From assembly GCF_019649055.1 (NCBI RefSeq), contig NW_026570418.1, forward strand, positions 93,525 through 157,524: 64,000 nt of DNA, in the 5' to 3' direction. Shown here piece by piece: positions 2,945 through 58,950 of this stretch. The stretch is from Paramacrobiotus metropolitanus (taxonomy: Eukaryota > Tardigrada > Eutardigrada > Parachela > Macrobiotidae). A program made the position numbers and the translations under genes. Under the pieces are notes generated by a model. It saw nothing but the letters and a program-made list of their open reading frames with translations. It ran no database searches and had not been told where the DNA came from. Position 1 is the first letter of the stretch; every line of letters begins with the position of its first letter.

Positions 2945-5357
2945 CTGTAGAACATACTCAATATTTTCTATCCGTTCAGATCGGTGTGTTGACATATGCC
3001 GGTTATTTCTACAGACAGTCGTTTCATCGTTTAGGAATCTGGATAGAACTATTAGAAGGGGTCTATAGCATTGCGAACCAATTCGCAAATACTGCGCTAA
3101 TGAACTAAAGAATTTTCCATACAAGCACTGATTTAACGTAGTACGGTGGCTGTATTTAACGAAATCCACGATCACAGCATTATTTTTCTTTGCGCTATCT
3201 GTTTATTCGCTAAACCGCCCTTTCTGTTATCAACCGTTCTTTATACATTTGATGATCTTCATAACCCCGTGAAAAATAATTTTTCACCACTGCTTATTCT
3301 GGCTGAAAAATAAGTTTTCAAATAGACACCTACGCCTTTAAATACCAAGCATTGCTAGGTGCGAAGAAACCATTGCCGAATAAACTTTTATTACGTAGTG
3401 CGTTGGCTATCTACGCCTTCCGTGACAACGCTAAGTTCAAGGCGCTCTTAATATACATTGACTAAGCCCCTTAATGATCAAGCAGGACACAGAGTAATAA
3501 TTTTTGTCACGAGGATGTCTCTTAAAAAACGAAAAAATTCAATTAAAAATAGAAAGTTTACAAAACTGACCAGGGCTCGGTCACCACCTACCCCCTCAGA
3601 AAAATCTCAGCTTTTGTTTGAAGACAGAATACCTATAGGTATGGGGAACACTTAAAAAATACTTTCATCGGCAATGGTCCAGTGGGCGTGGCCAAACTCC
3701 ACTTTAATGGTTGACATTATTGCATGTATTGCCATTGCCGTATTGCTGTACATAATTATGGTGTTACAGATTACACAGATAAATTTATTTTGCGAGTCCT
3801 GCGTTGTCCATTACCACTATAGTTTTAGTCGTTGATTACCCATTACCACTGTAGTTATACTCCTGGATTGGAACCTTTTTAGTCCTTCACAGTAAAACGT
3901 AAAAAATAAACACTGTACATTTATAATTTTCTCAGACTTTGTAATAATACACACCTTTGTAACCTATGCTTGCAATATGCCTGCGAAAAGACGATAGGAC
4001 AGGAATAAGAAACCGCAGTTGCGTAGCAAAACACGGCTTTATGACCGCAGTGGCAGCTGTTGTGGGTGGGGTCTTACATTTACAGCGCTTGGACAGCTGC
4101 ATAGAATACAACTGAAAACCTCTCAGCCTCCTTTTTGATTTTCTTCTTGCGTTTTTCCATTGTGACAGTTTATTGCGAACCAAGCAAAGTATGCAACACT
4201 AGAATTGGCGTCACGACGTCTGATCGTACATCGGTGGCACCGACGCATAAAGCAATGGTTGCTTATAATTCGCTGCAACGGAATGCCTGCGATTTATTAT
4301 GAAGATGAAAGCGGTAGAGTTGACGTTCGACTTCTGTAAAATGTACGTGTTTCAGTTATTGAAAAAGTGGGCACGTGTGATAGTTCTCGTCGGCCTGCGA
4401 GCGCGCCATCGAGGTCATCCTCCACTTCAACGGCGTCCGCGGTCACAATGTAGAGGTCGCACAGTCTTGAGCTTGCATTCGTCATTCACTTCTCTTCCAT
4501 ATTCTTAATGAGGGCAGTCAACAGTTAAATGGTAACTATGGTGCACCTGCGGCGTGCGAGTGGTTGAACGATAGGAGTCGCTATTCGTGGATGACCTTTG
4601 CCTTGCAGCTAGCGAAGCGCGAGATTCGCCGCCACACTTCTGCAACTGGCAGTTTTGCAAACTGTACGCGCCACTCTGATCAGTCATTCTGAGCAATATG
4701 AAAATATATCAATCAGGGCTAGTCATTATTGTCGAAAGTTAAATTATTGCGGATAATTCCGGATAACTACATTGTGCATGCATTTTACAAAATGGTGGCC
4801 CAGTATGGGCGTGTTTCCTTTATACATGACTTATCCGGCAATAACTCTGCGAAATAATGTACTGTTTTCCACGTCCCCACAAAATGACAACAATTTGTTA
4901 AAAGTGTTGTTAGGAAATGAAAATCAATGCTATGAAATCCCATTTATAAATTTTTTTAAATTTTAATAAGCATTACAACACAAGCACAAACTAAGCACCG
5001 AAACAGATCAGGGATGAAAGAACAGTAGGGCAAGAAATTATGGAAAAACCATGATGAAAAGCACAAATGAAATTTATAAATTTTATAACACTGGACCATT
5101 ATTCCGCTTAAATAAACAGAAATAAACTGGTTTATAACTTTGCGACTGGCTGCTGCATACAGCGTGCACAAAACGAACGTCGACGGTATTTCGACTGTCC
5201 TGGTGCGCGAAGCCACTTCCCCCTCGGTAGTCACCAAGACCGACGGAAACCTCGCCTCAATGCCAGTATCCTGCTAAAATCGTTACCAGTAATATATTTT
5301 GTACGTGCAAAATCTCATGCGGAGCTATGAAAAAGCAGTTAACAGAATAATTTGTAC

Positions 5358-11786: not shown

Positions 11787-13440
11787 TTATTGTCGTGACT
11801 CGTGAGTGTCTGCTGCCTCGAATTGGGCTCGGCCCTGAATGTGCGTGGACGTTAAACCATTAAAACTCAGTACAAATGCCTCACACAACTGGTCGATCTC
11901 ATTCTGCAGCCGTTGCCACGCCGTTTGGATTCTTGCCCATCACGCGGAGCCGTTCTCCCGGTCGTCGCCGCTCTTCTGGTCGTCGCCGCTCTCCACGCCC
12001 GCAGTATGCATGTCCACGAGATTCCACAAATCCGCTGCCACATCCCGGTGACATCGCCACCGCTCCCTGGATCCGCGTGAGCAAACGTCATGCGAGTGCG
12101 AGCTGCCATTTCCCAGCAGCGTCGCCACTGACTGCGACCGGCGCCTAACCAGCGGATGGCATACCGATGCGGATCCAACAACAGGGTGCATTCTGGGCGG
12201 AAAGAGATGGCCTTCAAGCGCTGTGCTCCGCAGCGGGACGCCAGGAATTTCAAGGCATGGCTCGTGTCCTGCACCCAGCCCGCATCGTCTCCCCGAATCA
12301 TCAGGCGCTGTGTGGACGCACTCAGCCGGCGGACCATGAAGGCGGTGAGGGGATAGTCGGCGTGGTTTTCACTGCACCGGGGAATCGTGAGGAAGCACAT
12401 TAACACCGGCGACTGCAGAACGACCGCCCAGCGGCTGCATACACGCTGAAGGCGCGTCTGTTGCATAATGTACGCGTGGGAGAAGACCTCCAGCTGCAAT
12501 ACCACCGGCAGCCGCAGCGGAGCGCTGTTAATCACCGGCGGAGTGTCCGTCACGATGCGCAGCGTTTGGTATATTATCATCCTGGGAAGAGCCTTCATTA
12601 AGCGGCTGGCAAACTGATAGAAGCGTGCCTGCACAATCACCAAACATGCGAGAATTGTTGCTGCAATAACTGATAAAACAAAACCGATAAAATAAAAAGC
12701 ATATAAATAATGAAACAAACTGAATGCTATCAGTGAAAAATAAAATAACGATGAAAAATTACCTGCCGGCAGTGTGTGCGTTCAGTGTACGTCCAGGTGC
12801 AGCCGTCATCCATACGCTGCAGAAACCGAAACGGAATGATTGCATACTCCAAGGACCGCTGCGAAATGAACGTTTTGTCCCGACGCTCGTCCAACAGATG
12901 GCGCTGCATCGCCTTGGACTAGAGCGCCAGCTGTGCCATTAAGCGCACATGTCCCTTGAAAAACATTCCTGGACCGATAACGAGGCCGGAAAAGTATTCC
13001 TCCCCGTAGTACGCTCGCAACTCGGCATCGCTCCGCGGCCCACTGGCTAGAGCGCAGCAGGGTTAACGCAGCCGCTGCGGCGGGATGACATGGAGGGGTC
13101 CATCCGGCACGCCTTCCGCATTCAGCAGCTGCAACACGCCCACCTCCCCCGGCCAGCCGCTGCCCTGCTGTTGTGGGAAGGACATGGGAGCGGGCACCCA
13201 TGGCCGCTGGGACGCAGCAGCACTTGCACCGACTGCCGCTTATCGGGACGGGGCTACCACATATGCAGCAACGTCAGCATTTCGAAGACACGGTGGAAGG
13301 GCGTTAAAGTCGATATAGATGTCCATCACCCGCGACGTCCACCACGCGGCCGTAACGCAGATGACCGCTCTCCTCCGAGACGTCTACACTGCCGCTTCGC
13401 AGCACATCTCGTAGCGTTCCACAGTGCCTTTTAAGCGCGA
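11787..13440 (-). pseudogene. decayed F-box-like gene with one recognisable intron
   Basis: A GC-rich island reads on the minus strand as a multi-domain protein split across frames. In order it shows an N-terminal motif (SGHLRYGRVVDVAGDG, then LYIDFNALPP), a middle block (VQVLLRPSGHG... GVPDGPLHVIPPQRLR), a segment (RAYYGEEYFSGLVIGPGMFF ... CTWTYTERTHCRQ), then an F-box-like stretch (LEVFSHAYIMQQTRLQRVC, SRWAVVLQSP). Exon 1 ends at 12763 (CAG|GTAATT) and exon 2 starts at 12628 (GTGCAG|GCACGC). Both are phase 0, so a 134-bp intron is credible. The frame is broken by several shifts (near 13330, 13240 and 12150), in-frame stops (for instance TAG after MAQLAL) and a TGA before WARIQTAWQRLQ. It resembles the gene at 26345-27987 and is probably a dead paralogue. 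The domain assignment relies on memory of tardigrade F-box-like proteins. Confidence 0.55.
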
Positions 13441-26344: not shown

Positions 26345-27987
26345 CTAGTCGGCGGCATTTTCTCCAGTCCATTCCTCCATCTCGTAGACGCTGGATTCGC
26401 CGTCGGCACGGCTGTCCTCACAGGCTGGCAGGTGATCCGCGTGCGCCGTGTCGTCCGGGGCGGATGCAGGACGGCGCTCCGCCGCATCCATCCAACGCGA
26501 CAAGGCATACAAGCAGATGCGATTCAGCTGGTCCACATCTGCGCTGACCACATTCTCCTCACTCCACTGGCGTCCGCGATAGTGTGCCGAGGGGCGCGGA
26601 TCGCAGGACTGCAAGTCCCGAAGGATCTGCACTACATATATCTTTTCTTCCAGCACAATTGGTTTCCTTGTCTAACTCCATTTCAAAATTTTCTAATTTA
26701 TTTTAATTTATACCAGAATAACTTTTTTTTTAGTTTATTTCTGAAATAAAATCATAAAAAACCAAGTCATTATTTTTTAACAAATAGCAATAATAAACAA
26801 AATGAAAACTTCGTTTTATCTGTGCGATGAAAAAAGGAACTTCTGTTTAATTACTATTTAAATAACAGCACCTGCACATCAAAAATTCGATTAAATTCAG
26901 TGCCGATTCAGAAAAATTCAGTTAAATTCGATTAAGTTCAACAAACTAGTGCAATGAAATAAATGTTGAAGAAAACACCGAAGTTATTACTGTTTCATTT
27001 ATTATTAGAAAAATTATCATCTCTCCATTTTAAAATAATTCACAAACAGCCCGAATTCGTTGGAATTTCCAGTCTAATTAAAGCCGTACAGTAATTACGA
27101 TCTTAAAACGTTTTACGTGATACTTTTTAACACAGCACACTAGCCGTTTCTACCTTGATCATTGGCCACGCGTCCTTCCCGCTCTGGCAGGCAAGGGCCA
27201 GGCTACCGACGATGCGCTGCAAATCCAACGGCGGTCCCGTCCAGTGCAGATGCCGCTCCAAGACCTCCACGATGCGCGCCGCATCGGCCTGTCCCGGGGT
27301 GAAGACGGCAGCGGGAATGCGGAACTCCATCCAGGGCGCGCCGACTTCATCCGGCAGGGTGAGGACGTAGCCCTTCCAAATCACCCGGTCACAGCACGCA
27401 AACAGTTGGGCCAGGTGCGCGGCCGTCTCGGCGGCCATGCCGGCCAGGCTGATCGGGGCCCCGCTGGCGTACAGCGCCGCCGACGCCCCGACCTCCACCG
27501 CTCGGTCGTACATGATCAACCGGTGCAGCCGTGTGCCGCTGCGGTCCAGGTGCCGGCGAATGAGACCCAGCGGTTCATTGGCGATGTATTCGGCGTCCCG
27601 CAGGTACCAGCAGCGGCGGTGGTCGGTGGTGCTGCCGATGCAGACCCTGCGGGTGGCCGGTGTCAGGCATTTGACAATACAACCGTATAAAACGTAATCG
27701 AAATGCCAGTGTGGAGGTGACGCCGAGTCGGCCGTCTGCTCCGCAACACGCACATCGCGGCAAAGCTCCGCCGACGTCAGAATGCTGTCCCACAGCTGAC
27801 AGGTGCGACGGCAGCGTTGACGCGCGACGGTGTCAAGCGAGCGGAAAACCTCCTTCAGCACGTCCAACGACAACACCAAACCATCTTCGCCGACATTCAA
27901 CGGCTCCTCTTCTGGCGACGGGTGGGTGTTCTTCGGCAACTGGGCGAGAAAGGCAGGATGCCTTCGTTCACTGGCGAACACCCGAGC
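26345..27987 (-). CDS. F-box-like protein gene, two exons, 5' part missing
   Basis: Exon A (27987 to 27154) follows a 3' splice site (TTTAATATAG|GCTCGG) and opens with ARVFASERRHPAFLAQ. It contains an F-box-like helix set (LVLSLDVLKEVFRSLDTV, then RRTCQLWDSILTSAELC), the usual adaptor that binds Skp1 in SCF ubiquitin ligases. A long leucine-rich region follows (VLYGCIVKCLTPATR; WYLRDAEYIANEPLG; VLERHLHWTGPPLDLQRIVG). The donor is AAG|GTAGAA. Exon B (26626 to 26345, acceptor GTGCAG|ATCCTT) continues in the same phase with ILRDLQSCDPRPSAHYRG and ends MEEWTGENAAD-stop. The intron is 527 bp (26627-27153). No ATG precedes the F-box in frame. The upstream exons, which in the paralogue at 11787-13440 carry a VVDVAGDG-type domain, are absent or lie beyond the foldback at 28100. 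The GC content is far above the surroundings. The F-box assignment and the tardigrade affinity are from motif memory, and substrates are unknown. Confidence 0.65.
26627..27153 (-). other. intron of the F-box-like gene
   Basis: Bounded by GTAGAA at the donor and GTGCAG at the acceptor, phase 0 on both sides. It is strongly AT-rich and contains many stop codons in all frames, in contrast to the GC-rich exons. Confidence 0.7.
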
Positions 27988-34980: not shown

Positions 34981-35480
34981 CCCCCCCCTGAAAGATGAAA
35001 CGGGCTCCTTTGCATAAAGATGAGTATCCAGCATTGATCTAACATACAGATAAGCGGGAAAAATTTAACTTATGGAAATTTGATTTGGAGAAAACTTTTT
35101 GATTTTATTTACTGCTTTTTTATTCGACTCTGCCTTTTCCTGTGTAGTCGCATTTTTGTTTACCGGTATATTATACAAAGCGAAAAAACACTGATCCGTA
35201 CGTATCCATTTGTTACGTCTCAACACAAATCACAGCTATCAAACCGTAAGCGGATTAAAATTGTTTTAACAGCGAAAACATTCCTGCCATTGCACTACGT
35301 TACTTCGGCAAACATGCTTACCTAACACGGCATACATGTCAGGGATAATAATTATTAAAGATTTCGACTGATATTTGGAATAGATTTCGACTGATATTTC
35401 GAATAGATAGATATTCGTAGTGCTTACTATAGATATTTACTAACTATTATTATATTTTTTTGAATTGTTACATTTGATTT
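34981..35480. other. gene-free DNA before the retrotransposon
   Basis: Contains a C-run, an inverted GTAGTGCA core at about 35290-35299, and a 23-bp tandem duplication at 35361-35406 (ATTTCGACTGATATTTGGAA, then TAG). No gene. Confidence 0.5.
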
Positions 35481-35613
35481 GGGCTTATTATTATTGCCCC
35501 TGAATGGCAAATTTCCCGCCGTTCAGTATGGAGGGTGGCTGCGGGACCGTAGTCTGGTAGACTGGTGTTCTCCAGAGGCTGTGTGGTGGCAGCTGTCCCG
35601 CAGACATCCAGCG
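35481..35613 (+). promoter_or_regulatory. conserved structured 5' leader RNA of retrotransposon copy 1
   Basis: 133 nt that align almost base for base with 43650-43520 of the other element. Helix A: CTGAATGGC (35500-35508) pairs with GCCGTTCAG (35518-35526) around the conserved loop AAATTTCCC. Helix B: TGCGGGAC (35540-35547) pairs with GTCCCGCA (35595-35602), enclosing GTCTGGTAGAC and CTCCAGAGGCTG. A GGGC...GCCC stem is possible at the extreme 5' end. In the other element both helices carry compensatory changes. Similarity stops right after CCAGCG. The role is unknown: self-cleavage, translation initiation and protein binding are all possible. Confidence 0.7.
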
Positions 35614-35640
35614 TCTCCGGGAGACATAGGCTCTTTGGAC

Positions 35641-38519
35641 ATGCGCTTCAAAGCCTCCAAGGACCACGTGGCCAGTCAAGATGGGCAGACCGCTCCTAAG
35701 CAGCCTTCACCTGTTGCTGGTCTTCAGGAATTGCTAACGGGACCGCGCGTGAAGATATCTGCCAGGATCCCCAAAGCTGTCAAGCACCTTTGTGCGACGG
35801 AATTTCTAAAGAGAGTCCGTCGCTGTGTGCAGCAGAATGACGTGGCGGCCTGGAGCGCAGTGCTGAATTTTTCTAGGTTCGCACTGGCACTACCTGAATC
35901 GAAAGCCCTTCGTAAGGATTCCTTGAGCACTATCGTCAAAAAGAATCTGCATGCGATGGAGGAGAGCATTACAGACACGGAACGCGCCAACAGTCGACCA
36001 ACTCATAAAGCGACACGGGGAAACAGGGGAAAGAAAATGAACGATGCAGAACATCTTCGTAAACGAGTGGCTCAGATGTTTCAAAATGGGCGGACCAAGG
36101 ACATTGTTAAATTCCTTTCATCGGAAGAAACAATATCGGAAATGAATGATGAAACCATAGCTGCTCTTAGAGATAAACATCCCAAACGGTCGCCTGATGA
36201 AAATTTTACACCTCGTGCTGCAGAGCCTTTAGCAGTACCACGTGTCTCTCCAGCTGAGTTACTGGACGCTATATTCAGCATCCCCGCCGGATCTGCCGGA
36301 GGTTTCTCGGGAATGAAACCCCAACACTTGAAAGACATGCTGAACCGCCGAGATGACGTAGAAAGTGAGCTTTGTCTGGCCATGACAGGCCTAATGGATA
36401 TTGTTCTCAATGGCAAAGTTCCTGCTGAAGTTCTTCCCTTTTTATTTGGAGCAAATTTAATTCCTTTAAAAAAACCTACTGGAGGGATCCGGCCTATTGC
36501 AGTCGGTGAAGTACTACGCAGGATAGCGTCGAAGATTGTCAGTGCAAGGTGTCAGGAACAACTGGGCGCACTTTTCCGCCCTGTTCAACTGGGATACGGA
36601 ACGAAAGGAGGCGCTGAAGCTATCGTACACGCTGCTCGAACGTACTTGGAAACAGATCACGGAGGCACACGAGTAATGGTCAAACTGGACTTTAAAAACG
36701 CTTTCAACATGATCAGCAGAAGCGCAGTTTTGGAAGCAGTTCAGTCCGTTATCCCTGTGTACCACCCCTATTTCGATCAGGCGTATGCACCTGTATCCCA
36801 TCTGGCCTGTCAAGACACCGTCATAGCATCGGAAAGTGGTGTGCAGCAAGGCGATCCTGGAGGGCCGTTTACCTCTGCCTGGGAACTTTTCCATTGCTGA
36901 GGAGACTACAAAGCCAATTTAAAGCCGGTTTCCTGGATGATGTAACCCTGGCGGGACTGATTGAAGAAGTAATGGCAGACATAAGAACCATTGAAGAAGA
37001 AGGGAAAAAGATAGGCCTCGTGTTAAATTATGGCAAATGTGAAGCATATTTCTTCGGTGGAAGCGAGGAAGAGCAAGCGGCCGCTAAGCATCCCTTGGTT
37101 TGGGAGTGGCCGGAATTCGAGATTCTAAACAGCGAAACACTTACGTTATTAGGAGCACCAGTTAACGTGATCGCAGTGCCCTCCTTTTTGAGAGGCAAAA
37201 TTCTCGAAATCGAGAGACTGGTGGAAAGGCTGAAACTGCTGCCATCTCAACAATCACTGTATCTCCTCAGAAACTGTCTCAGCGTGCCGAAGTTAATGCA
37301 TACCCTACGCAGCAGCCAGTGTCACGATCTCCCTGAAGTCCTTCGTGAATTTGACAGCTTAATGCGTGTTGCTGTCACATCAATCGTTAATGCTCACATT
37401 GAAGACAAGAATTGGACACAAATGACCATGCCGGTCAGCCGGGGCGGTCTGGGAATACGGCGGGCAGAGGAGCTAGCTTTGTCGGCGTTTATCGCTTCGG
37501 CGTCCTCGGTTCTGCCAGTGTGCCTGGAAATGCTTCCGGTCGATCGGTTATCTGGTCTGGAGCAGGCGATGGACAAGTGGGTAAAGCAGTATCAGTGCGA
37601 AATGCCGTCCGAAAATTTAAGGAAATTTCAAAAGAGTTGGGATTGGCCAGTCGTGGAGCGAGCATACTCACAGCTGCGTCTATCAGCGATGGCCAATGGT
37701 AAGCCGCAAGAGATGGCAGCACTATTAGCGGCGTCCGAGAAAGAATCAGCGGCATGGTTGCACGCGTTACCGGCTGCAAGCTTGGGAACGATGGTGAATG
37801 ACGAACATGTAAGAATTGCCCACGCGTTACCGGCTGCAAGCTTGGGAACGATGGTGAATGACGAACATGTAAGAATTGCCGTGGGATTACGATTTGGTTT
37901 GCCAGTAGTGGCACCACATGAATGCGCGGGTTGTGGCTTCCAGGTAACTTCAGATGGCCACCACGGATTGTCCTGCCTGTATAGCAAAGGTAGATGGAGC
38001 CAGCATTTGGAACTGAACAGTATACTGGAAAGGGGATGTGTAGCAGCGGATATACCTTGCGAGTTGGAACCGAAAGGAATATTCAGGGACAACGGGAAGC
38101 GTCCAGACGGATTGACATTGGTGCCAGTGCGAGACGGAAAGCAGCTTGTATGGGACGCCACTTTTGCGGACACGCTAGCACAGTCGTACGTTAAACGGTC
38201 AGCAAAAGCAGCGGGCGCAGCGGCACACCAAGCAGAATGTCGGAAGCGATACAACTATCGGCAGCTGGGCGAAGAATACTGGTTTTATCCTTTTGCCGTG
38301 GAAACCCTGGGAGTGCTCGGCGAAGGAGCCAGAGAAATGGTCAGTTTTCTTGGACGGAAAACGAAGGAGAGGTCCGGGGAATGCAGATCCACGGCTTTTT
38401 TAAAGCAGCGTATTAGCCTCGCAATTATTAAAGGCAATGCGGCTGCCGTTTTAGGAACTTTACCGGGCAAGAATAAACTGATGGATAATACTGATTTCGG
38501 TTGTTTTTTTAATTCTTAA
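35641..38519 (+). pseudogene. retrotransposon ORF: reverse transcriptase plus REL endonuclease, one frameshift
   Basis: From the first ATG in frame (MRFKASKDH) the first part runs to a TGA at 36900 and holds RT motif A (VMVKLDFKNAFN) and motif B (ESGVQQGDP). A shift near 36868 moves the reading into the frame that continues YLCLGTFPLLRRLQS, motif C (GFLDDVT), GLVLNYGKCE and LTLLGAP. The thumb region (SRGGLGIRRAEELALSAF), a CCHC knuckle (CAGCGFQVTSDGHHGLSC) and the REL-ENDO core (RPDG ... WDATFADT) follow, ending GNAAAVLGTLPG. The YxDD tyrosine is Phe, but both aspartates are present. The N-terminal zinc finger of the intact relative is lacking. Both halves are otherwise open for about 960 codons, so inactivation is recent or the shift is a sequencing error. 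An in-frame 60-bp tandem duplication lies at 37761-37880. Confidence 0.85.
37761..37880 (+). repeat. exact 60-bp tandem duplication inside the retrotransposon ORF
   Basis: The unit starting CACGCGTTACCGGCTGCAAG occurs twice with no difference (37761-37820, 37821-37880). It doubles the peptide HALPAASLGTMVNDEHVRIA while keeping the frame. The other copies have one such unit (NALPSAHIGNLLDDE...). Confidence 0.9.
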
Positions 38520-38849
38520 TTGTGTATTGTTGGCCGTAGTGATATGAATTACGACTGTTATGTCGCGATAAGAACATAAACTATAAAGTTTTTATCATTA
38601 TTAAAGAAATTGCTATGCGCTCCAACAAGCCAGGCTCGTAGAATTTGGCTAAGCGCCCGTAATATCCGGGCGCAGATATATTAGAATTGGAATTTTTTCT
38701 ATGAATTTCTTGGTTTTACCTAATTTTTTATTCTAGGTTCACGAATTATGTTTAGGCAGAGCAGGAAATTGTACAGTTTTAGATGTCTGCGCACGTTTTC
38801 CCGTTCGCCAGCGATGCGTCGTTCAAAAATCATCAGTAAAATTAATGAT
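38520..38849. other. retrotransposon tail and a GCGCCC palindrome
   Basis: The AT-rich tail follows the stop codon. At about 38646-38674 the sequence TTGGCTAAGCGCCCGTAATA, then TCCGGGCGC, forms a 7-9-bp palindrome. It resembles one TIR unit of the protease element at 53640-54952. Confidence 0.4.
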
Positions 38850-39390
38850 GACAGAAGATTCATATGCGCAGTGTCCGCTGGCAATATTATGGTGCTGTCA
38901 ACCTGGCAAACTTTTTCTTCAACATTCTAGCGAGAAGCTTGAAATATGTCGATGAATAATATTAAAAACATATTTTCTTCTGACTTTTATTTGCTGTGCT
39001 TGCGTTTGTGGTCATACACATTTATTTTTAAAAAGTAACAAACTATGAACATCGGCGGAAAAACTACAAGGAGAAATAAACAGTATAAAAAGTTGGGATA
39101 AAAACCTAAAGGATAAAGTTGGGATAAAGTTGGGATCTTCACGGTCTGACCATTTGTCCGTTTTCTCTAAACCTTTACAATTAAAGAAGCTACTGTATGC
39201 CATCGTTCTACGACGTTCTCCTTTTCTCTATGTCTTAATTTGCCGATCTGCAACACTTAACATTATGGTATATGAGATAAACAAATGGTCAAATTTGGTA
39301 AATCTGTAATCGAAGTAACTGTCTTCGTAAAAATGCTTTTGGTAAAGTATTTATGGTTTTGAGATGTCAAGTTTACTAAATTTTGAGTGA
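38850..39390 (+). repeat. dispersed repeat, copy 2 (partner at 24370-24900)
   Basis: Matches the other copy through TATGCGCAGTGTC, GTGCTTGCGTTTGTGGTC, ATGCCATCGTTCTACGA, ATATGAGATAAACAAATGGT and TTTGGTAAAGTATTTATGG. An AAAGTTGGGAT word is locally repeated at 39086-39135. Confidence 0.55.
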
Positions 39391-40569
39391 AGCATTAAGT
39401 GGCTGGACCGGGAGGAAAGTGGATTTCATTGAACACCCGCCTTGCACTATTCTGCTGGTTGGAAGTGTAATCTTCAAGCGGCAACGTGCTGTCCATTTCT
39501 TCCTTATTGGGCAAGTGAAGAACATTGCGTTAAGTGGGATGCATACAGTTTCACGTCGACGTGCCTCCCTGGCTTGCAGCCTTCCAAGAGTAATATACGA
39601 TATACTAACGTATCGATTATCGCGTACTCCACTAACGATATACTGAAAACGTTTGGCATAGAGCTGATTGTTCTTACTCGTTAACAGTTCTGTTCTCTGT
39701 TGTTCTCGTCGAAGCGGCAAAATTTTGGGTGTTGTGCTGAATCGCAGAGTATTGGTATGTAGCTGATTTCACCTATATGTAGCTTCCTTTTCAGTCATGC
39801 TCTACCGAAATAAAAGGTAAAAATCATCCACAACATCCTGTAATGGACAGAACCAAAATCATTAAATTCCAAGATAAAAAATTCATGTACTAAAGCAAAG
39901 GTTTTCCAGGTGCAATCGGATTATCGGAACATTTTTTGGGGGTATTGCATAGATCAACCTTTCTTTCTGTCCATCGCCCATACTTTATTCATGGTTATGT
40001 GAATTTTCCCCAAACCATCGCTCGACCACGGACTGCTGAAGTGGTTTCAGTCCGTGGTTGACCGGCACGATATTGACATTGTTCAGCGTCGTGCTTTCTA
40101 ATAAAACGCTTTCTTACGTTGCACGCAACAAGGGTGGGTTGGTCGAATACAACGATATTCCGTCATTTTGCAGTCAGAACACTTTTAATCTACAGCTTGT
40201 CGCTGCCAAATTGCTCGGTCAGTTAATTAGCGGACATGGACAGACAATTTCCCAGCTTGTGCACCAGAGCAGTTACGTTACTGAGGTGTATGCAGGTATG
40301 GCGTTGGATTTTCCCGAAGATTTTCGTCTTTAGAAGCCTCGTAGTCGTGAGATAAGGTTGCACCTCGAGGGATTTTTCTGCGTTCGCGTTTTGCAGAATA
40401 GCAAAGCGCTGGTCGATTCGCTGCCGATGGTGAAACGACTGGGTGGTCGCTGTCTTGGTTTTTTTCCACTCAGCATGTCACGAGCTGAGCCGCTTGTAGA
40501 TTTCTGCGCTGTAGTTTTATTAATAATCGCATAAGTTCTGGTAATAAAGAAAGAAATACGCTATCTTAT
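39391..40569. other. gene-free stretch and 3' flank of the intact retrotransposon
   Basis: No gene supported. A 14-bp hairpin with one mismatch is at 40022-40061 (TCGACCACGGACTG / CAGTCCGTGGTTGA). The last part, up to 40569, must include the 3' UTR of the minus-strand retrotransposon, whose end I cannot place. Confidence 0.4.
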
Positions 40570-43434
40570 TCACAACAGCAAAACTTCATTTAAACTATCC
40601 ACTCCGTCCATTGTGCCAAGGATAGATGCTGCATTTCCACGCTGAATCTCCAACGATATTCGTTGACGCAAAAACTCATGTGATCGACGCTCTCCTGTAT
40701 GCTCTTGAAGTCTTTTGCCCAACTCCTTCACGATGGCGATAGCCGATGGGCCCCAGGGGCCCATCGTTTTAAAGGCGATGGGAGAAAAGATATAGCGCCC
40801 TTGCAGATACGCATACAGTCGGGACTTCTTATCTTCTGCTTGTACAGCAGCAGCTGCAGCCGTAACCGACGTCGAAGGGAGATGGGAAAAGGCCACTGTG
40901 TCAACGCACGTCACATCCCAGGCCAGACACATTCCTCTTTTCCAGGCGAAAGTTGTACAACCGTCAGGGCGTTGATCTGTTGTAGAGGACGTACCGCGTG
41001 GTTCCAGCTTAGCGGGAACACCGGCTGAAACGCACGCCCGGCATACAATGCTGTTTAATCCACCATGGCGCGCGTGTCTACCGGCCGAGTAGCTGCATGA
41101 TAAACCGTGGTGTCCTAACTTGTCAACGAGCTTCTGGCATTTAGTGCAGTTATGGGGCTCGCAAATATCCGCTCCAAGACGAAGACCGATTGAGATTTTA
41201 ATCATCTCATCGTCGAGGAGGTTACCGATGTGGGCTGAGGGAAGCGCATTCAACCAAATACCGGCTTCAGGACAGGACTGAGCGAGAAAACGAGCTGTGT
41301 TAACGATGTCACCGCGAAACAAGTTCAATAAAACAGAAGCCGACACATTACAAAGCGGTAAGTCCCATGTTTTTTGGAGCTTCCGGAAACCAACTTCTGG
41401 AACTTCTGTTAGGCGGGCTTTGGTTTTCCACAACTCCACCGCTTCTGAAGCGTTCACTGCTGGTAGGTGAGGAAGCATTGATGACAACAAATCAGATACG
41501 GAATGAATCGAAGCCAAGTAGGCTGGAAGTGCTAATTCCTCCGCACGACGTATGCCAATACCTCCTCGACTGACCGGAAGTGTCGCTTGACGCCAGCATG
41601 GGTAGTCATCATGGTTTACCCGAACGTTACTGAGTTCTTGAAAACATGAGCGCAGTGACTCGTCGATTTGATAAAGCAATTTCGAATGTTTCCAGGCATT
41701 GCAACATCTGAGCACGTATATAATCTTCGGGGCACCCAAGCAGTGTCGAAGTAGATATAGTGCATGGTGGCGAGGAAGAAGTTGCAACCGTTCACAGGCT
41801 TTCTTTATGGCGCTTGATTTCTCAGAAAGAGTTTCACCAATCGCATCATCCAGCACCGGGGCGCCTAGCAGGGTTAGAGTTGAGCTTGACACCACGCGGA
41901 GCTGTGGGTGGTGCGAAACAAATTCATCAACCACGGCTTGCCGTTCAATTTCGGAGCCTCCCGATACAAAAAGTTCACATTTAGCCTCGTTTATGTCAAG
42001 TCCAATAGCATGTGCGCCTTCGATGACACGTCTGAAGTTTTCTGCAACAGTCGCCGGCGTTCCGCCCAGGGTTCCGTCGTCTAGGTACCAGGCATTAAGC
42101 TCGGTATCCAGCGTGGCAATTACTCGAAGCAAAGCCAGGCAGAACAGCAGCGGTCCCAACGGATCGCCTTGTTGCACCCCAGACTCAGACGACATCACCA
42201 TTTCATCAATGAACAAAGAAGAATGATGTCCATACGCCGGCCAAAAGAAATCATCGTATTCCGGGAAGTGTGTATGTACAGCTTCCAAAACCACTTCACG
42301 AGATACGGTATTGAATGCGTTGCGAAAGTCGATTTTCACGAGTGCTTTAATGCTCTCCGGCGTAGACTGGACAAAATGTCTGGTTGCGTGGACGATGGCC
42401 TCGGCTCCGCCCCGTACGTTGAAGCCAGACTGCTGAGGAGTTAGCAAGGCGGTTGCCCGGTCCGCTATTCTGCTGCAGATGATTTTGGCAAGTAGATGAC
42501 GCATCGACAGTCCTACCGCTATAAGGCGCAACCCGCCGTCTTTCTTTCGCAAAGCCAGCAAGTTACCTCCAAAAAATATCGGCCGTATATCAGCAGGTAC
42601 TTTGCCTTGCATAACCAAGGACAGCACAGAGGCCATGGCTTCGCAAAAGGGACCGCTCAGATCATCTAACTTTGAACCCACCAAGTCCAGCAGATGTTGG
42701 GGCCTTAAGCCATCTGGTCCTGCTGCTGAGCCCCGCGGGAAAGTGTGGATGGCAGCAAAAACCTCTGCAGCAGTTATTACGGGCGCAGCAGGAGCGGTGG
42801 TAGCGCGGCGAGCCGTTGACGGTGGGGCGCATAAGGGGTGCTTCTCTCGTAGACTTTGGAGAACTTCAGGGGTGCAGTCCGCCACTGAATCAGTAGACAA
42901 CAGAACCCGCATTGCTCCGGAGATGGATCCGTCGTCAATCTTCTGACCGACTTGACGAACGAGATCTTCATCGCTGCTGCGTTTTCTCCGACTTGACGGT
43001 GGGGGGCTGGGAGGCACATCCGTACCTTGTTCGTATAACGCGAGGTTTTTCTTCACTGCAGTTGCAAGTGAGGCTGTTCGCTCGGATTTGACTTTATCTG
43101 GGAGGCGGAGTGCACTAGGGCAGAAAAAGAGCAGTTTCGTCCAAAACTGGCTGTCGTTCTTGGTGGCGACCTGTTGGAGCACTTTCTGTAGTGCGGATCT
43201 CACCGCAGGTCTTGCACCATGGGGAACGCGGCGTAGTATTCGCTCCTTACTCGGGTGAAAAGATGCGGCCGTAGGTGGGGTAGGTGCAGCTCCCCGCGAA
43301 TTGCTAGAAGTGGAGGCAGCGCTGGCGGCTGGGATCAGCTTCAGGTCCTGCGACAGGGTTTTGGGGCAAACGGGTCTGTGGGATCCCCAGGCCTGCAACA
43401 GTTTACCGCAGCCAGAACAAGAAAACTGAGGCAT
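40570..43434 (-). CDS. intact 954-aa retrotransposon protein: zinc finger, reverse transcriptase, REL endonuclease
   Basis: One uninterrupted ORF starts at ATG 43434. Domains: an N-terminal CCHC finger (CSGCGKLLQAWGSHRPVC, residues 6-23); a Ser/Pro-rich linker; RT with motif A KIDFRNAF (D369), motif B SGVQQGDPLGPLLF (418-431) and motif C WYLDDG (D452, D453); GLDINEAKCELF and LTLLGAP; a thumb-like region (SRGGIGIRRAEELA, 622-635); a second CCHC knuckle (C763, C766, H775/H776, C780); and a restriction-like endonuclease core RPDG (822-825) with WDVT (D840) and a downstream KK..LY. This order is that of the R2/NeSL-type REL-ENDO non-LTR clades. They nick a target and prime cDNA synthesis there. 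All catalytic residues expected are present, so the protein may be active. A 216-nt leader precedes it. Target specificity cannot be judged here. Confidence 0.93.
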   Translation of the reverse strand: MPQFSCSGCGKLLQAWGSHRPVCPKTLSQDLKLIPAASAASTSSNSRGAAPTPPTAASFHPSKERILRRVPHGARPAVRSALQKVLQQVATKNDSQFWTKLLFFCPSALRLPDKVKSERTASLATAVKKNLALYEQGTDVPPSPPPSSRRKRSSDEDLVRQVGQKIDDGSISGAMRVLLSTDSVADCTPEVLQSLREKHPLCAPPSTARRATTAPAAPVITAAEVFAAIHTFPRGSAAGPDGLRPQHLLDLVGSKLDDLSGPFCEAMASVLSLVMQGKVPADIRPIFFGGNLLALRKKDGGLRLIAVGLSMRHLLAKIICSRIADRATALLTPQQSGFNVRGGAEAIVHATRHFVQSTPESIKALVKIDFRNAFNTVSREVVLEAVHTHFPEYDDFFWPAYGHHSSLFIDEMVMSSESGVQQGDPLGPLLFCLALLRVIATLDTELNAWYLDDGTLGGTPATVAENFRRVIEGAHAIGLDINEAKCELFVSGGSEIERQAVVDEFVSHHPQLRVVSSSTLTLLGAPVLDDAIGETLSEKSSAIKKACERLQLLPRHHALYLLRHCLGAPKIIYVLRCCNAWKHSKLLYQIDESLRSCFQELSNVRVNHDDYPCWRQATLPVSRGGIGIRRAEELALPAYLASIHSVSDLLSSMLPHLPAVNASEAVELWKTKARLTEVPEVGFRKLQKTWDLPLCNVSASVLLNLFRGDIVNTARFLAQSCPEAGIWLNALPSAHIGNLLDDEMIKISIGLRLGADICEPHNCTKCQKLVDKLGHHGLSCSYSAGRHARHGGLNSIVCRACVSAGVPAKLEPRGTSSTTDQRPDGCTTFAWKRGMCLAWDVTCVDTVAFSHLPSTSVTAAAAAVQAEDKKSRLYAYLQGRYIFSPIAFKTMGPWGPSAIAIVKELGKRLQEHTGERRSHEFLRQRISLEIQRGNAASILGTMDGVDSLNEVLLL

Positions 43435-43519
43435 GGTGGGGAGAACATTCGCCGATGAAAATCGCAGTTAAAGGAGCAGATACTGTAGTGAGGGACTTAC
43501 AAGAAAACCGCTGGTGTGT

Positions 43520-43650
43520 CGCTGGATGTCTACGGGACAGCTGCCACCACACAGCCTCTGGAGAAACGATCTACCAGACTAAGGTCCCGTAGCCACCCTC
43601 CAAACTGAATGACGGGAAATTTGTCATTCAGGGGCAAAAATCACGAGCCC
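43520..43650 (-). promoter_or_regulatory. conserved structured 5' leader RNA of retrotransposon copy 2
   Basis: 131 nt homologous to 35481-35613. Helix A: CTGAATGAC (43631-43623) with GTCATTCAG (43613-43605), loop AAATTTCCC. Helix B: TACGGGAC (43591-43584) with GTCCCGTA (43538-43531). Relative to copy 1, a G-C pair has become A-T in each helix and a T-G wobble has become T-A. The single-stranded parts GGAGGGTGGCT and CTCCAGAGGCTGTGTGGTGG are unchanged. Confidence 0.7.
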
Positions 43651-51844: not shown

Positions 51845-52899
51845 CTATTCTCTGTTGTTGTTTAGGTAAACTTCCAGGGTCGGTGGGACTACACAAAAAT
51901 AATCAGCAACTTTTCTCCCGTACCCCAAACAGACACGACAATTCAGTAGTAAAGTTCCAACTGTGTAGAGAAGTCCAACTGGCTGCAAATATATTTTGAG
52001 ATTTTTCCGGGAATCGAGAAAAGCAAACTGTTGGACTACTTCTCCGAAACCCCACTCAACTGCGATACGACACGCTGACATGGCTTCTTTAAAATCGTAC
52101 TCGATCTGATTTGTTGCTGGTTTAAACGGACCCTCGAGATGCGCCGAAATCGGATAAGCACGGTCTCCATAAAGGCGAAAAAGTTTCCCATTTGCTCCAT
52201 TTTTGTTTCCAGCGCACGTAACAGGCCACTGTCCGCTAGTATGCCTGAATCGTGTCGACGTCCAGCCCACGGCCCATCCAGATTTACCACAATGCCGATA
52301 GGGGCCATAATGCTCTGGAATTTGATGCCATGAAGACGATAGTGGCCGCTATATACTGTTCTCTGATCCTCACCAGGACGACAAGTTGGGCGGAATGTAC
52401 CGTCTATGAAGCCCCAGACGTCATCCAGAGGACATCCCTTTCTGTACACGGCGGCCGCGAATTCGTCCATATCTGCTCGTGTAAGCCAACACAGGTCCAG
52501 TGTAGTTAATAGATGACAAAACAGCGTGTTGATAAATTCACACATCCAGGTAAAAATCATCGATAACTCAGCTTTTGATCTCCCAAAAATGTGCTTGATG
52601 TCCGTGTAGCGACTAGGGTATGCAAGACGTCGCAGTAAAATACACAGGGCTTCCATACCATCATAACGGGATCCGTTTTCGAGGCGGATTATTTCGGTAA
52701 TCTGCAATGCCTGCAATAGTCTTTCTAAATGCTCCCTCCGAAATCGAAACCATTCATAAACATCTGCGTCGTAGAGCTGGTCTAAGTTAAGAAGAACACG
52801 AAGCGGTCGTTCCACATTGCAGATGCACAGAAACTCAGCTTTCTGCTGATCAGACAGAATGTTTGAGACCAAAATCAAAGAAACAGTTTTTTTGTCCAT
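51845..52899 (-). pseudogene. PIF/Harbinger DDE transposase 1, single frameshift
   Basis: ATG at 52899 (MDKKTVSLILVSNILSDQQK). The helix-turn-helix-like region has GMEALCILLRRLAYPSRYTD and HIFGRSKAELS. Catalytic D1 is in WGFIDGTFRPTCRP (D166) and D2 in GPWAGRRHDSGIL (D217). The last acidic block (RLYGDRAYPISAHLEGPFK) and the conserved end (ACRIAVEWGFGEVV, FLDSRKNLKIYLQPVG, LLLNCRVCLGYG, PPTLEVYL) are in a different frame. The switch lies at the TTTTT run near 52171-52180, so one indel in a homopolymer separates the halves. Otherwise the enzyme would be of normal length (about 350 aa) with its DDE-type residues. Such proteins cut and paste elements at 3-bp targets. Element ends were not found. 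Confidence 0.85.
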
Positions 52900-53632
52900 G
52901 ATGCAAGGTATAAGCAGGGTATATTCAATATGCAGGGTAATTCATTCAAAAACTTAAGAACTGCTTTTCGAAATCGATATTAAACAATTTTAATTAGTTA
53001 TTCACGTGTTTCGTAACAAACCCTACGCGCGATGCGCGTAGCGCTATGTGAAAACTTAACAAGTGGACACTAGGCGCTAATTTACAGCTCCACTCTTATT
53101 ATGCGTTCAGCGATGCGTTCAGCTAATGAAAAACTTCTTCTGTCTAGTGAGTACGATTTTGCAACTTACTAGTAGGCAAAAACTGGAAATCGCACATTTA
53201 ACCGCCCGTGGAAGACCTCCAAGTTGAGTGCATATCGCAGACTTTCTCCCGCACTTCAACGAAAACTACAACACTAAATGCTAACTGTAGGAAGACAAAA
53301 AAAAGTGAAATTAAGAGGCCAACAAGAATTAATAAGGCATGAAATTAAAGACCAAAAATAGCTAAATAAATTTTAAGAAAATCGCACTGCTTCGGATTAC
53401 TTCGATTACATATGGTGCGCGCGCTTTAGCGTGAACTTTCTAATGGCACGTTTTTAGTATCCTGCTAACTACATTCTGCACTGTGGAAATTTCACCTTAA
53501 CTCGCAAAGGTATGGAAATATTCCACAATTAGCGCGCATTTTATTGAAGGAAAATGTAGTGTAAAGGCTTTAATGAAAGCGATGTTCTTCCCGACAGCCG
53601 CTTGCCGAACTAAGGTTGCATGTTTTAATTAA
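52900..53632. other. gap between Harbinger element 1 and the protease element
   Basis: Contains the promoter side of the transposase, a perfect 8-bp hairpin CTACGCGC-GAT-GCGCGTAG near 53022-53040, and a GTAGTGTAAAGGCTT core at 53556-53570. No gene. Confidence 0.5.
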
Positions 53633-55663: not shown

Positions 55664-55762
55664 CCGTCAATTTTCAGCTTCAAGGCAAGCAGCACAGAAA
55701 TACCGAATATCGTTGCTATTTGGTATTTCTGTGCTGCTTGCCTTGAAGCTGCTAATTGACGG
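55664..55762. repeat. 99-nt hairpin with 41-bp arms, precursor-miRNA-like size
   Basis: CCGTCAATT..CAGCTTC and then AAGGCAAGCAGCACAGAAAT plus ACC (55664-55704) is inverted at 55722-55762 with only two mismatches and a 17-nt loop. It may be a very short MITE or a small-RNA hairpin. There are no neighbouring genes. Confidence 0.75.
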
Positions 55763-57777: not shown

Positions 57778-58950
57778 ATGCGTTTCTTTATTATTGCCCA
57801 TTTATTGAGATCAGGACGAATAGACAGAAGACAATTTACCGCATCAAGACTCCTTAAAAGAAGACAGGATGAAGCGTATTACCGTGAAAAGCAGGAGGCT
57901 TGGATCGAAAACCGTTTCATCTCGTCCGCTTCTCGGATTTGGATTGTTGGAGGATGTTTCGAGTCCGGAAGGATGATATAGATCGCCCACGGATGGCTTT
58001 GCGCATCCCGGATCTCGTTCGTACTGTAGAACGAGATAGATGTACTGGTATAGAAGCCTTGTGTATTTTGTTAAAAAGGATGTCGTATCCTAATCGATGG
58101 TGTGATCTTCGGAGTACTTTCGGACGATCTCATGGGTCTGTGGCGCGAATTTTTTATCATACGCTGCGATTGGTTGACTGTCACTGGTCCCGGTTGCTCT
58201 CTGCCCTTAACCAGCCTTGGCTAACGCAGGGAGACTTTGACGAGTTCTCTCGTGCTATCACAGCAAAAGGCGGAGTCTATTCGCGAGTCAGTGGATTCAT
58301 TGACGAGAAAGCAAGGGAAATATGTCGCCCAAAAAGACACCAGCGTATTATGTACAGTGGCCACAAAAGGTTTCACTGTACGAAATGGCAGTCTGTGCTG
58401 TTTCCAAATGGTGCGTTAACAAACTTTATAATATTCTCCAATAAAATTGCATGTAGCAGAGCAAAAACAAATTCTTTAGATAATTTATTTAAACTTTTAA
58501 CAGGTATGATCGGTAACCTTTACGGAGCGAAAGAAGGATCCATGCACGACAGTAGGATGTTTGCCGAAAGCAATTTTTTGCAACACTTCCGCGAAAAACA
58601 AGCTCCATTTAACCAGCGATATTATATTTATGGAGATTCAGGATACGGCCGAAAAGATTTGTTGATAAAACCATTTTCTTAAACAGAGACAGCGACCAAC
58701 CCCTTAAAATACGCCCTGAATGAAGCCATGTCAACAGTAAAAGAGTCAGTGGAATGGGGCTCCAAAGAAGTTGTCAAGGAATTTTGCTTTCGTAGATTAC
58801 AGGAAAGAGATGAAAATTTTTGCAAAACCAGTTAATAAGATTTTTAGAGTTGCTGTTTTACTGACGAACTGCAGAAATTGCTTGTATCCTAATCAAGCCA
58901 GTCAGTACTTTAATCTAGAGCCACCACTTCTGAAAGAATATTTGGGAGAA
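57778..58950 (+). pseudogene. PIF/Harbinger DDE transposase 2, decayed, one intron
   Basis: ATG at 57778 (MRFFIIAHLLRSGRIDRRQF). Near 57900 the frame shifts to KPFHLVRFSDLDCWRMFRV, GIEALCILLKRMSYPNRWCD and STFGRSHGSVARIFY. D1 is in VSGFIDEKAREICRP (the usual GT after the Asp is changed). Then come YSGHKRFHCTKWQSVLFPNG, an intron at 58411-58503 (AATG|GTGCGT ... TTTTAACAG|GTATG, phase 1), D2 in GSMHDSRMFAES and D3 in YIYGDSGYGRKDLL. A stop at 58681 and two more shifts separate the C-terminal parts (NEAMSTVKESVEWGSKEVVK; FAFVDYRKEMKIFAKPV; LLTNCRNC). It is a different family from transposase 1, judging by intron position and motif spelling. No full-length product is possible. Confidence 0.8.

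What the first reader, a model, noticed from the sequence alone, without database searches (positions are those of the whole stretch)
35481..43650. Covarying 5' leader RNA shared by two otherwise diverged REL-ENDO retrotransposons
Seen: 35481-35613 (plus) and 43650-43520 (minus) align over about 132 nt with roughly a dozen differences, then similarity stops. The encoded proteins are much more diverged. Two long-range helices keep pairing through double substitutions (G-C to A-T in helix A and in helix B) plus a wobble-to-pair change. Loop AAATTTCCC and the internal GGAGGGTGGCT and CTCCAGAGGCTG are invariant. Known: R2-type elements often carry functional 5' RNA, for example HDV-like self-cleaving ribozymes. 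I could not fit this to the HDV or hammerhead layout, so it may be a new leader RNA class (processing, translation start or RT binding).
Basis: partly seen in the sequence, partly recalled or inferred. Interest (0 to 1): 0.78.

Follow-up and report, generated by a model that had tools for sequence, protein, structure and literature searches.

The report
Portable structured leader RNA of retrotransposons
Many families of jumping genes in this genome begin with the same folded RNA element, followed at a fixed distance by a splice-donor-like signal, and the element has moved between otherwise different families as a ready-made part, which suggests that it talks to the host cell and not to the jumping gene's own protein.

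Summary
The two window leaders (133 columns, 89.5% identical) belong to a family. In the window's genome I examined 81 leader copies, 80 with an R2-type reverse transcriptase behind them. Shared: a hairpin with loop AATTTCCC, GGGTGGC at the base of a long stem, and its 3' strand, usually YATC. On 46 type I sequences 97.0% of cells pair and 15 of 34 pairs change on both sides (0 of 500 shuffles). Not noticed before: a donor-like GTNRGT lies 26 or 27 nt after that strand in 72 of 81 copies (independent anchors). Leaders and bodies are re-assorted: neither type is a clade on the RT tree (p-AU 5e-5 and 1.2e-7), and the element at 43650-40516 is a mosaic. No Rfam family or consistent HDV layout fits. 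Best reading: a portable leader RNA addressed to host machinery, perhaps U1 snRNP. The function is inferred, not shown; cap-independent translation, RT binding and self-cleavage remain rivals.

The parts
35481..35613 (+). type I structured leader, copy 1 (start of a decayed element)
35500..35526 (+). hairpin A of copy 1; loop AAATTTCCC at 35509-35517
35533..35609 (+). stem C domain of copy 1: arms 35533-35547 (GGGTGGC...) and 35595-35609 (...CATCC), enclosing hairpins 35553-35576 and 35577-35594
35614..35628 (+). junction where about 120 nt, with the donor-like site and start codon of relatives, are missing in copy 1
35629..38566 (+). body of the decayed copy 1 (R2-type RT; frame broken, two open stretches 35464-36900 and 36696-38519)
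43520..43650 (-). type I structured leader, copy 2 (element with an open ORF)
43605..43631 (-). hairpin A of copy 2; loop AAATTTCCC at 43614-43622
43524..43598 (-). stem C domain of copy 2 (GGGTGGC at 43592-43598; 3' strand CATCC at 43524-43528), enclosing two hairpins
43495..43500 (-). GTAAGT, donor-like site 27 nt after the start of ATCC
40573..43434 (-). 954-aa ORF from the ATG: N-terminal Cys/His finger, R2-type RT, C-terminal CCHC-like and PD..D endonuclease-like motifs (motif names recalled)
43302..43331 (-). breakpoint zone of the mosaic: 5' of it like L008, 3' of it like type II elements L048/L050
40516..43650 (-). element of copy 2, ending in ...TTATTAATAAA; exact 5' end uncertain; L024 is 99.2% identical over 3146 nt

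Best explanation
It is a self-contained 5' leader RNA module of R2-type retrotransposons. Shown: a hairpin with loop AAUUUCCC, a long multi-branched stem opening with GGGUGGC and closing (usually) with YAUC, and a donor-like GUNRGU 26 or 27 nt further on; selection on structure; exchange between families. Inferred: because leaders 86-94% identical serve bodies whose RTs are only 40-53% identical, with a finger at the N-terminus or without one, the partner is probably the host cell and not the element's protein. Most likely the folded domain binds a host factor, and U1 snRNP docks at the donor-like site at a set distance. Together they would make the transcript of a randomly inserted element full-length, stable and translatable whatever its flank. 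New 5' ends would be acquired by template switching during reverse transcription. The U1 step and its effect are hypotheses.
For: 80 of 81 leaders precede an RT. Type I: 97.0% of cells paired, 15 of 34 pairs changed on both sides, 0/500 shuffles, slid versions 30-47%. Hairpin A arms in 54 distinct rows: mean stem 6.9; re-dealt arms 3.8, maximum of 500 re-deals 4.6. Conserved G-U pairs suit the sense strand as the RNA. Leader 93-97% identical where four-fold sites are 44-60%, 6 of 7 pairs. GTNRGT: with anchors set without regard to it, the first one within 120 nt of the type I model end is at 20 or 21 in 39 of 46 and absent in 7; in type II 32 of 34 have the stem strand 26 nt before it. Spacers differ between families. 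Letters trade off as in donors: type I NN|GTAAGT, type II AG|GT(C,T,G)(A,G)GT; the host U1 5' end is AUACUUACCUG. RT and leader identities. Re-assortment. Copies lie in differing flanks.
Against: No acceptor belonging to the donor was found, and in type II the start codon lies only 24-33 nt after it, so no intron fits before the ORF. GTTGGT and GTGGGT are poor donors (recalled). One copy (L071) is joined exactly at the site, but its relative L086 has no AG at the acceptor side. No expression data. In two exchanges the N-terminal finger travelled with the leader, which a protein partner would also explain. Some elements of the same clade do without this leader (type III: L038, L041, L043, L044). 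In the L049 family the leader changes faster (67-78% at four-fold 37-49%).
Confidence: 0.42

Rival explanations
1. Cap-independent translation start (IRES-like): the folded leader brings ribosomes to the ORF.
For: A stable structure stands before the ORF. 52 of 60 copies have at least one ATG inside the leader (95 in 9205 nt); after the GT site there are 16 ATGs in 3161 nt, in 15 of 60 copies. In type II a pyrimidine run lies shortly before the ATG (by eye). R2 RNA is described as IRES-translated (PMC7650587, passage seen).
Against: The donor-like motif keeps its distance to the structure, not to the ATG (24-83 nt in 59 of 60 copies, 155 in L009). No complement of the loop in 28S/ITS or U1; 18S could not be tested.
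Confidence: 0.25
2. A binding site for the element's own RT protein (like the 5' RNA bound by R2), which orders the two halves of insertion.
For: Solved R2 structures include entries titled 'R2 with 5'ORF' (8iby, 8ibz). The loop CCC and stem GGG could form a pseudoknot (RNAalifold pairs them in A6). The finger travelled with the leader in two exchanges.
Against: Leaders 86-94% identical serve RTs 40-53% identical and N-termini with and without a finger. Leader type is not a clade on the RT tree.
Confidence: 0.2
3. A new self-cleaving ribozyme that trims the 5' end.
For: Invariant loops with free-changing helices look like a catalytic RNA. R2 elements carry a 5' ribozyme (PMC3414825, start of abstract seen; PMC4035085, passages seen). 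Function would not depend on the body.
Against: No Rfam ribozyme at the leaders. An HDV layout in 3 of 12 representatives, at differing places. Judged by eye from what close copies share, element ends lie a varying distance, about 8-45 nt, upstream of the structure, unlike a precise cleavage.
Confidence: 0.1
4. The shared leader is only recent gene conversion, without function as RNA.
For: Exchange is real.
Against: Compensatory changes and slow evolution inside families.
Confidence: 0.03

Closest known systems
HDV-like ribozymes at the 5' end of R2
   Same: structured RNA at the 5' end of an R2-type retrotransposon
   Different: no consistent HDV layout, 5' ends at varying distance, insertions not at one site
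Pr77 hallmark of trypanosomatid L1Tc/ingi elements (PMC4035085, passages seen)
   Same: short conserved 5' hallmark shared by diverged elements, acting as RNA
   Different: Pr77 is a 77-nt promoter plus HDV-like ribozyme; here a longer fold with a donor-like site and no HDV layout
BLAG non-site-specific R2-like elements of Blattella (PMC7650587, passages seen)
   Same: dispersed R2-like elements; a recombinant whose exchanged part holds zinc fingers
   Different: no structured leader RNA is mentioned in the passages I saw
5' UTR recruitment and exchange in mouse L1 (PMC3600994, abstract seen)
   Same: 5' UTRs newly recruited and exchanged between LINE families
   Different: there non-homologous promoters; here a conserved RNA fold
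Retroviral 5' leader with major splice donor (recalled)
   Same: conserved hairpins followed by a splice donor upstream of the first ORF
   Different: analogy only; no splicing shown, no relation

Membership tests
R2-type (restriction-like endonuclease) LINE | R2-like reverse transcriptase | tested here: met
   profile of 8 ORFs hits R2 proteins first, E 2.3e-18; the 7 best Foldseek rows are R2; by VIA-align LINE-1 and R2 chains are tied at Z 18-19
R2-type (restriction-like endonuclease) LINE | C-terminal CCHC knuckle and PD..D endonuclease | tested here: inconclusive
   letters fit (C, H and RPDG...WD invariant in 8 ORFs; motif recalled), but no Pfam hit and low model confidence there
R2 proper | insertion at one site in 28S rDNA | tested here: not met
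   flanks differ between the copies read
HDV-like ribozyme | nested double-pseudoknot layout with catalytic C | tested here: not met
   no Rfam match at the leaders; layout scan 3 of 12, no common place
HDV-like ribozyme | self-cleavage | not testable with these tools
   needs in vitro transcription
5' splice site | complementarity to U1 5' end | tested here: met
   mean 7.0 of 9 letters at the site over 72 copies (four letters, GT..GT, given by selection), 0.7-3.5 at other offsets from -30 to +30
5' splice site | used in splicing with an AG acceptor | tested here: inconclusive
   one junction at the site without AG in its relative; no RNA data
IRES | internal initiation in a bicistronic test | not testable with these tools
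   only indirect signs

The most novel reading that the evidence does not exclude
A new RNA class: a portable leader that positions U1 snRNP at a fixed distance without splicing, to license the expression of randomly inserted LINEs. It is traded between families like a cassette, with or without the N-terminal finger.
Probability: 0.25. Interest if true: 0.88.

Novelty: new variant of a known kind. Interest (0 to 1): 0.72.

Why it matters
Structured 5' RNAs of R2-type LINEs are known (to my recollection) mainly as HDV-like ribozymes. This family has another fold, an anchored donor-like site and clear evidence of module exchange. It makes the question of how dispersed R2-like elements get expressed testable, and offers a compact RNA part that goes with very different RTs.

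Tried and rejected
HDV-like and other known ribozymes: Rfam gave no match at the leaders, and a hand-written layout scan nothing consistent (3 of 12; six segment-swap shuffles each, of which some also hit). An intron between donor and start codon: too short in type II. Spliced retrocopies: breaks of L071, W1p, L026 and L006 were read and L062's alignment end; only L071 breaks at the site, without an AG in its relative. L025, L059, L085 and L092 were aligned but their breaks not read. Base pairing of the loop with rRNA or U1: none in 28S/ITS or U1 (GGGAAA alone occurs twice in 28S/ITS, its reverse once); 18S reads mostly N, so not tested. Target-site duplications: only an 8-letter match for W2m and a low-complexity one for L011, among 10 copies, not convincing. 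Host name: a COX1 family search found nothing, and I gave this up. Literature: eight searches were answered, three of them with no paper; no title or abstract start listed names this leader. The collection holds open-licence papers only, so that does not show it is unpublished.

Rows dropped before counts: from A3, 11 of 36 (L009 with a core identical to L010, L014 with a 13-nt duplication, L026, and the diverged L029-L036); from A5, L014; from A6 and A7, L085, L052 and L092 (rearranged). RT rows: of 104 sequences 82 kept, 14 dropped for under 170 aligned residues (10 of them short upstream pieces), 8 without a match. 55 of the 82 were chosen by hand for the tree, a 'quick' tree. Six of the 82 pattern hits (L054, L056, L074, L075, L076, L084) have no R1 match and no RT and count as chance; the control pattern also gave 6. 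L062 has a leader but no RT in the 1.5 kb read. The leader types were named from leader sequence, but a first RT tree had been seen before the clade tests. One search asked only for 26 or 27 nt and only for 24-29 nt; one search asked without that limit.

Full report
What is there. The two stretches named in the finding are 89.5% identical over 133 columns and fold into the same shape: a weak 5' hairpin, hairpin A (9 bp, loop AAATTTCCC), then a long stem carrying two hairpins. A search of the window's own genome (170 Mb, 533 contigs) with the plus copy found 36 places. All 36 lie at the 5' side of an R2-type reverse transcriptase. P0003, the open frame of the minus-strand element (965 aa from stop to stop, 954 from its ATG), matches R2 proteins best in the PDB by sequence and by Foldseek; by VIA-align LINE-1 and R2 chains tie.

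More copies. The pattern AATTTCCC, 12-42 letters, GGGTGGC matched 82 places against 6 for the reversed control. Of these, 31 were among the 36, 4 lie upstream of elements found by protein, and 47 were new. Of the 47, 40 have an RT within 1.5 kb, L062 has the leader by covariance model (59.6 bits) but no RT, and 6 look like chance. This gives 81 leaders, 80 with an RT. The R1 model matches 46 of the 47 type I leaders (the 47th, L014, was left out and scored 119.4 bits) and none of the type II. Counts in this genome are lower bounds, as the tool says.

Two layouts. Type II (34) has a second hairpin between A and the long stem, and quite different helix letters. Both have the loop and GGGTGGC, for 30 of the 34 type II copies by way of finding, and a 3' stem strand that is usually YATC, sometimes ACCC, AGCC or ATTC. 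A third kind of leader without these marks (L038, L041, L043, L044) occurs in related elements.

Structure is selected. On 46 type I sequences 97.0% of cells pair, 15 of 34 pairs have both-side changes in 87 cells, and no shuffle reaches this, except for the count of pair types (149 of 500); slid versions pair at 30-47%. This alignment was fitted to the model, which favours the structure. The MAFFT alignment of 25 close sequences gave 98.2% paired and 4 pairs with double change; there 37 of 500 shuffles reached the number of pairs and 500 of 500 the number of types, so it is weaker. Hairpin A, taken over both types, has 23 different inner arm pairs; mean stem 6.9 against 3.8 when arms are re-dealt; one row (L031) pairs by a single base pair in that count. 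Conserved G-U pairs suit the sense strand as the RNA.

A fixed donor-like site. From the start of the 3' strand (ATC or its variants) to a GTNRGT there are 26 nt in 52 and 27 nt in 20 of 81 copies. A check with anchors set without regard to GT: in 46 type I copies the first GTNRGT within 120 nt of the model's end is at 20 (19 copies) or 21 (20 copies) and absent in 7, with six further scattered sites at 59-108; of 34 type II copies 33 have a GTNRGT 80-200 nt after GGGTGGC and 32 have the stem strand exactly 26 nt before it. The nine without the site are W1p, L062, L071, L085 and L092 (broken or rearranged there) and L006, L019, L035 and L067 (letter changes). Spacer letters differ between families. 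Letters around GT trade off as in 5' splice sites: NN|GTAAGT in type I, AG|GTNRGT in type II; host U1 begins AUACUUACCUG. The distance from GT to the ORF's ATG varies, 24-83 nt in 59 of 60 copies and 155 in L009, so the site belongs to the structure, not to the start codon.

Exchange. On a quick tree of 55 RT regions neither type I nor type II is one clade (p-AU 5e-5 and 1.2e-7). The program warned that long branches meet near L033 and that L027 is long. The element 43650-40516 is a mosaic: leader, 5' UTR and finger resemble L008 (80.6% DNA up to about 43331; N-terminal 34 aa 76%, RT 53%), while the body resembles type II elements L048/L050 (from about 43302; RT 64-67%, N-terminus 26%). The type IIb clade has a finger like IIa (50-59% to L065) on a body nearer to the W1p clade (RT 48-49% to L004, 43-45% to L065). 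L004, a relative of the plus copy without its deletion, resembles L008 for 161 nt only: the leader through the donor-like site.

Slow evolution. In 6 of 7 within-family pairs with four-fold identity 44-60% the leader is 93-97% identical (for example L008/L013 96.6% and 44.5%). The L049 family is an exception (leader 67-78% at four-fold 37-49%).

Mechanism. Shown: structure, conservation, fixed spacing, exchange. Inferred: leaders 86-94% identical go with RTs 40-53% identical, with a finger or without (for example W1p/W2m 90% and 42%), and type I as a whole goes with four kinds of finger or none (read by eye), so the partner is host-encoded or the RNA acts by itself. I favour a host-directed expression module with U1 docking. 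In-leader ATGs in 52 of 60 copies also suit cap-independent translation. The varying distance from element end to structure (about 8-45 nt, judged by eye; L048 and L055 share the whole 100 nt read and tell nothing) speaks against precise self-cleavage. RT binding, as in solved R2-5'ORF complexes (titles), is not excluded.

Known relatives. See Closest known systems. I saw abstracts or passages only. Eight paper searches listed nothing on such a leader by title or abstract start; the library is partial.

Noticed in passing
window 37761-37880: exact 60-nt tandem duplication inside the decayed ORF of the plus-strand element
   Followed up: partly
window 55680-55746: mir-16 model just passes its cut-off on both strands: a palindromic stretch, probably a foldback repeat and not a microRNA
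   Followed up: no
window 52036-52941 (-) and 57888-58682 (+): two open frames with DDE_Tnp_4 transposase matches
   Followed up: no
window 11867-12781 (-) and 27127-27987 (-): open frames with F-box matches, the first below the curated cut-off
   Followed up: no
L038, L041, L043, L044: related elements with a third leader: starts about TTGGGC/TTGGGT, long hairpin ACTTGGGG...CCCC(A/G)AGT, no AATTTCCC loop
   Followed up: partly
L057, L086, L093, L014 (upstream of the leader): partial repeats of the element's own 5' end just upstream, as expected from template jumping (by eye)
   Followed up: no
L071, oriented position 225/226: leader joined to the ORF exactly at the donor-like site; about 410 nt missing against L086
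   Followed up: partly
window 4608-4720 (-): weak match to the leader model, 18 bits, E 0.17; probably chance
   Followed up: no
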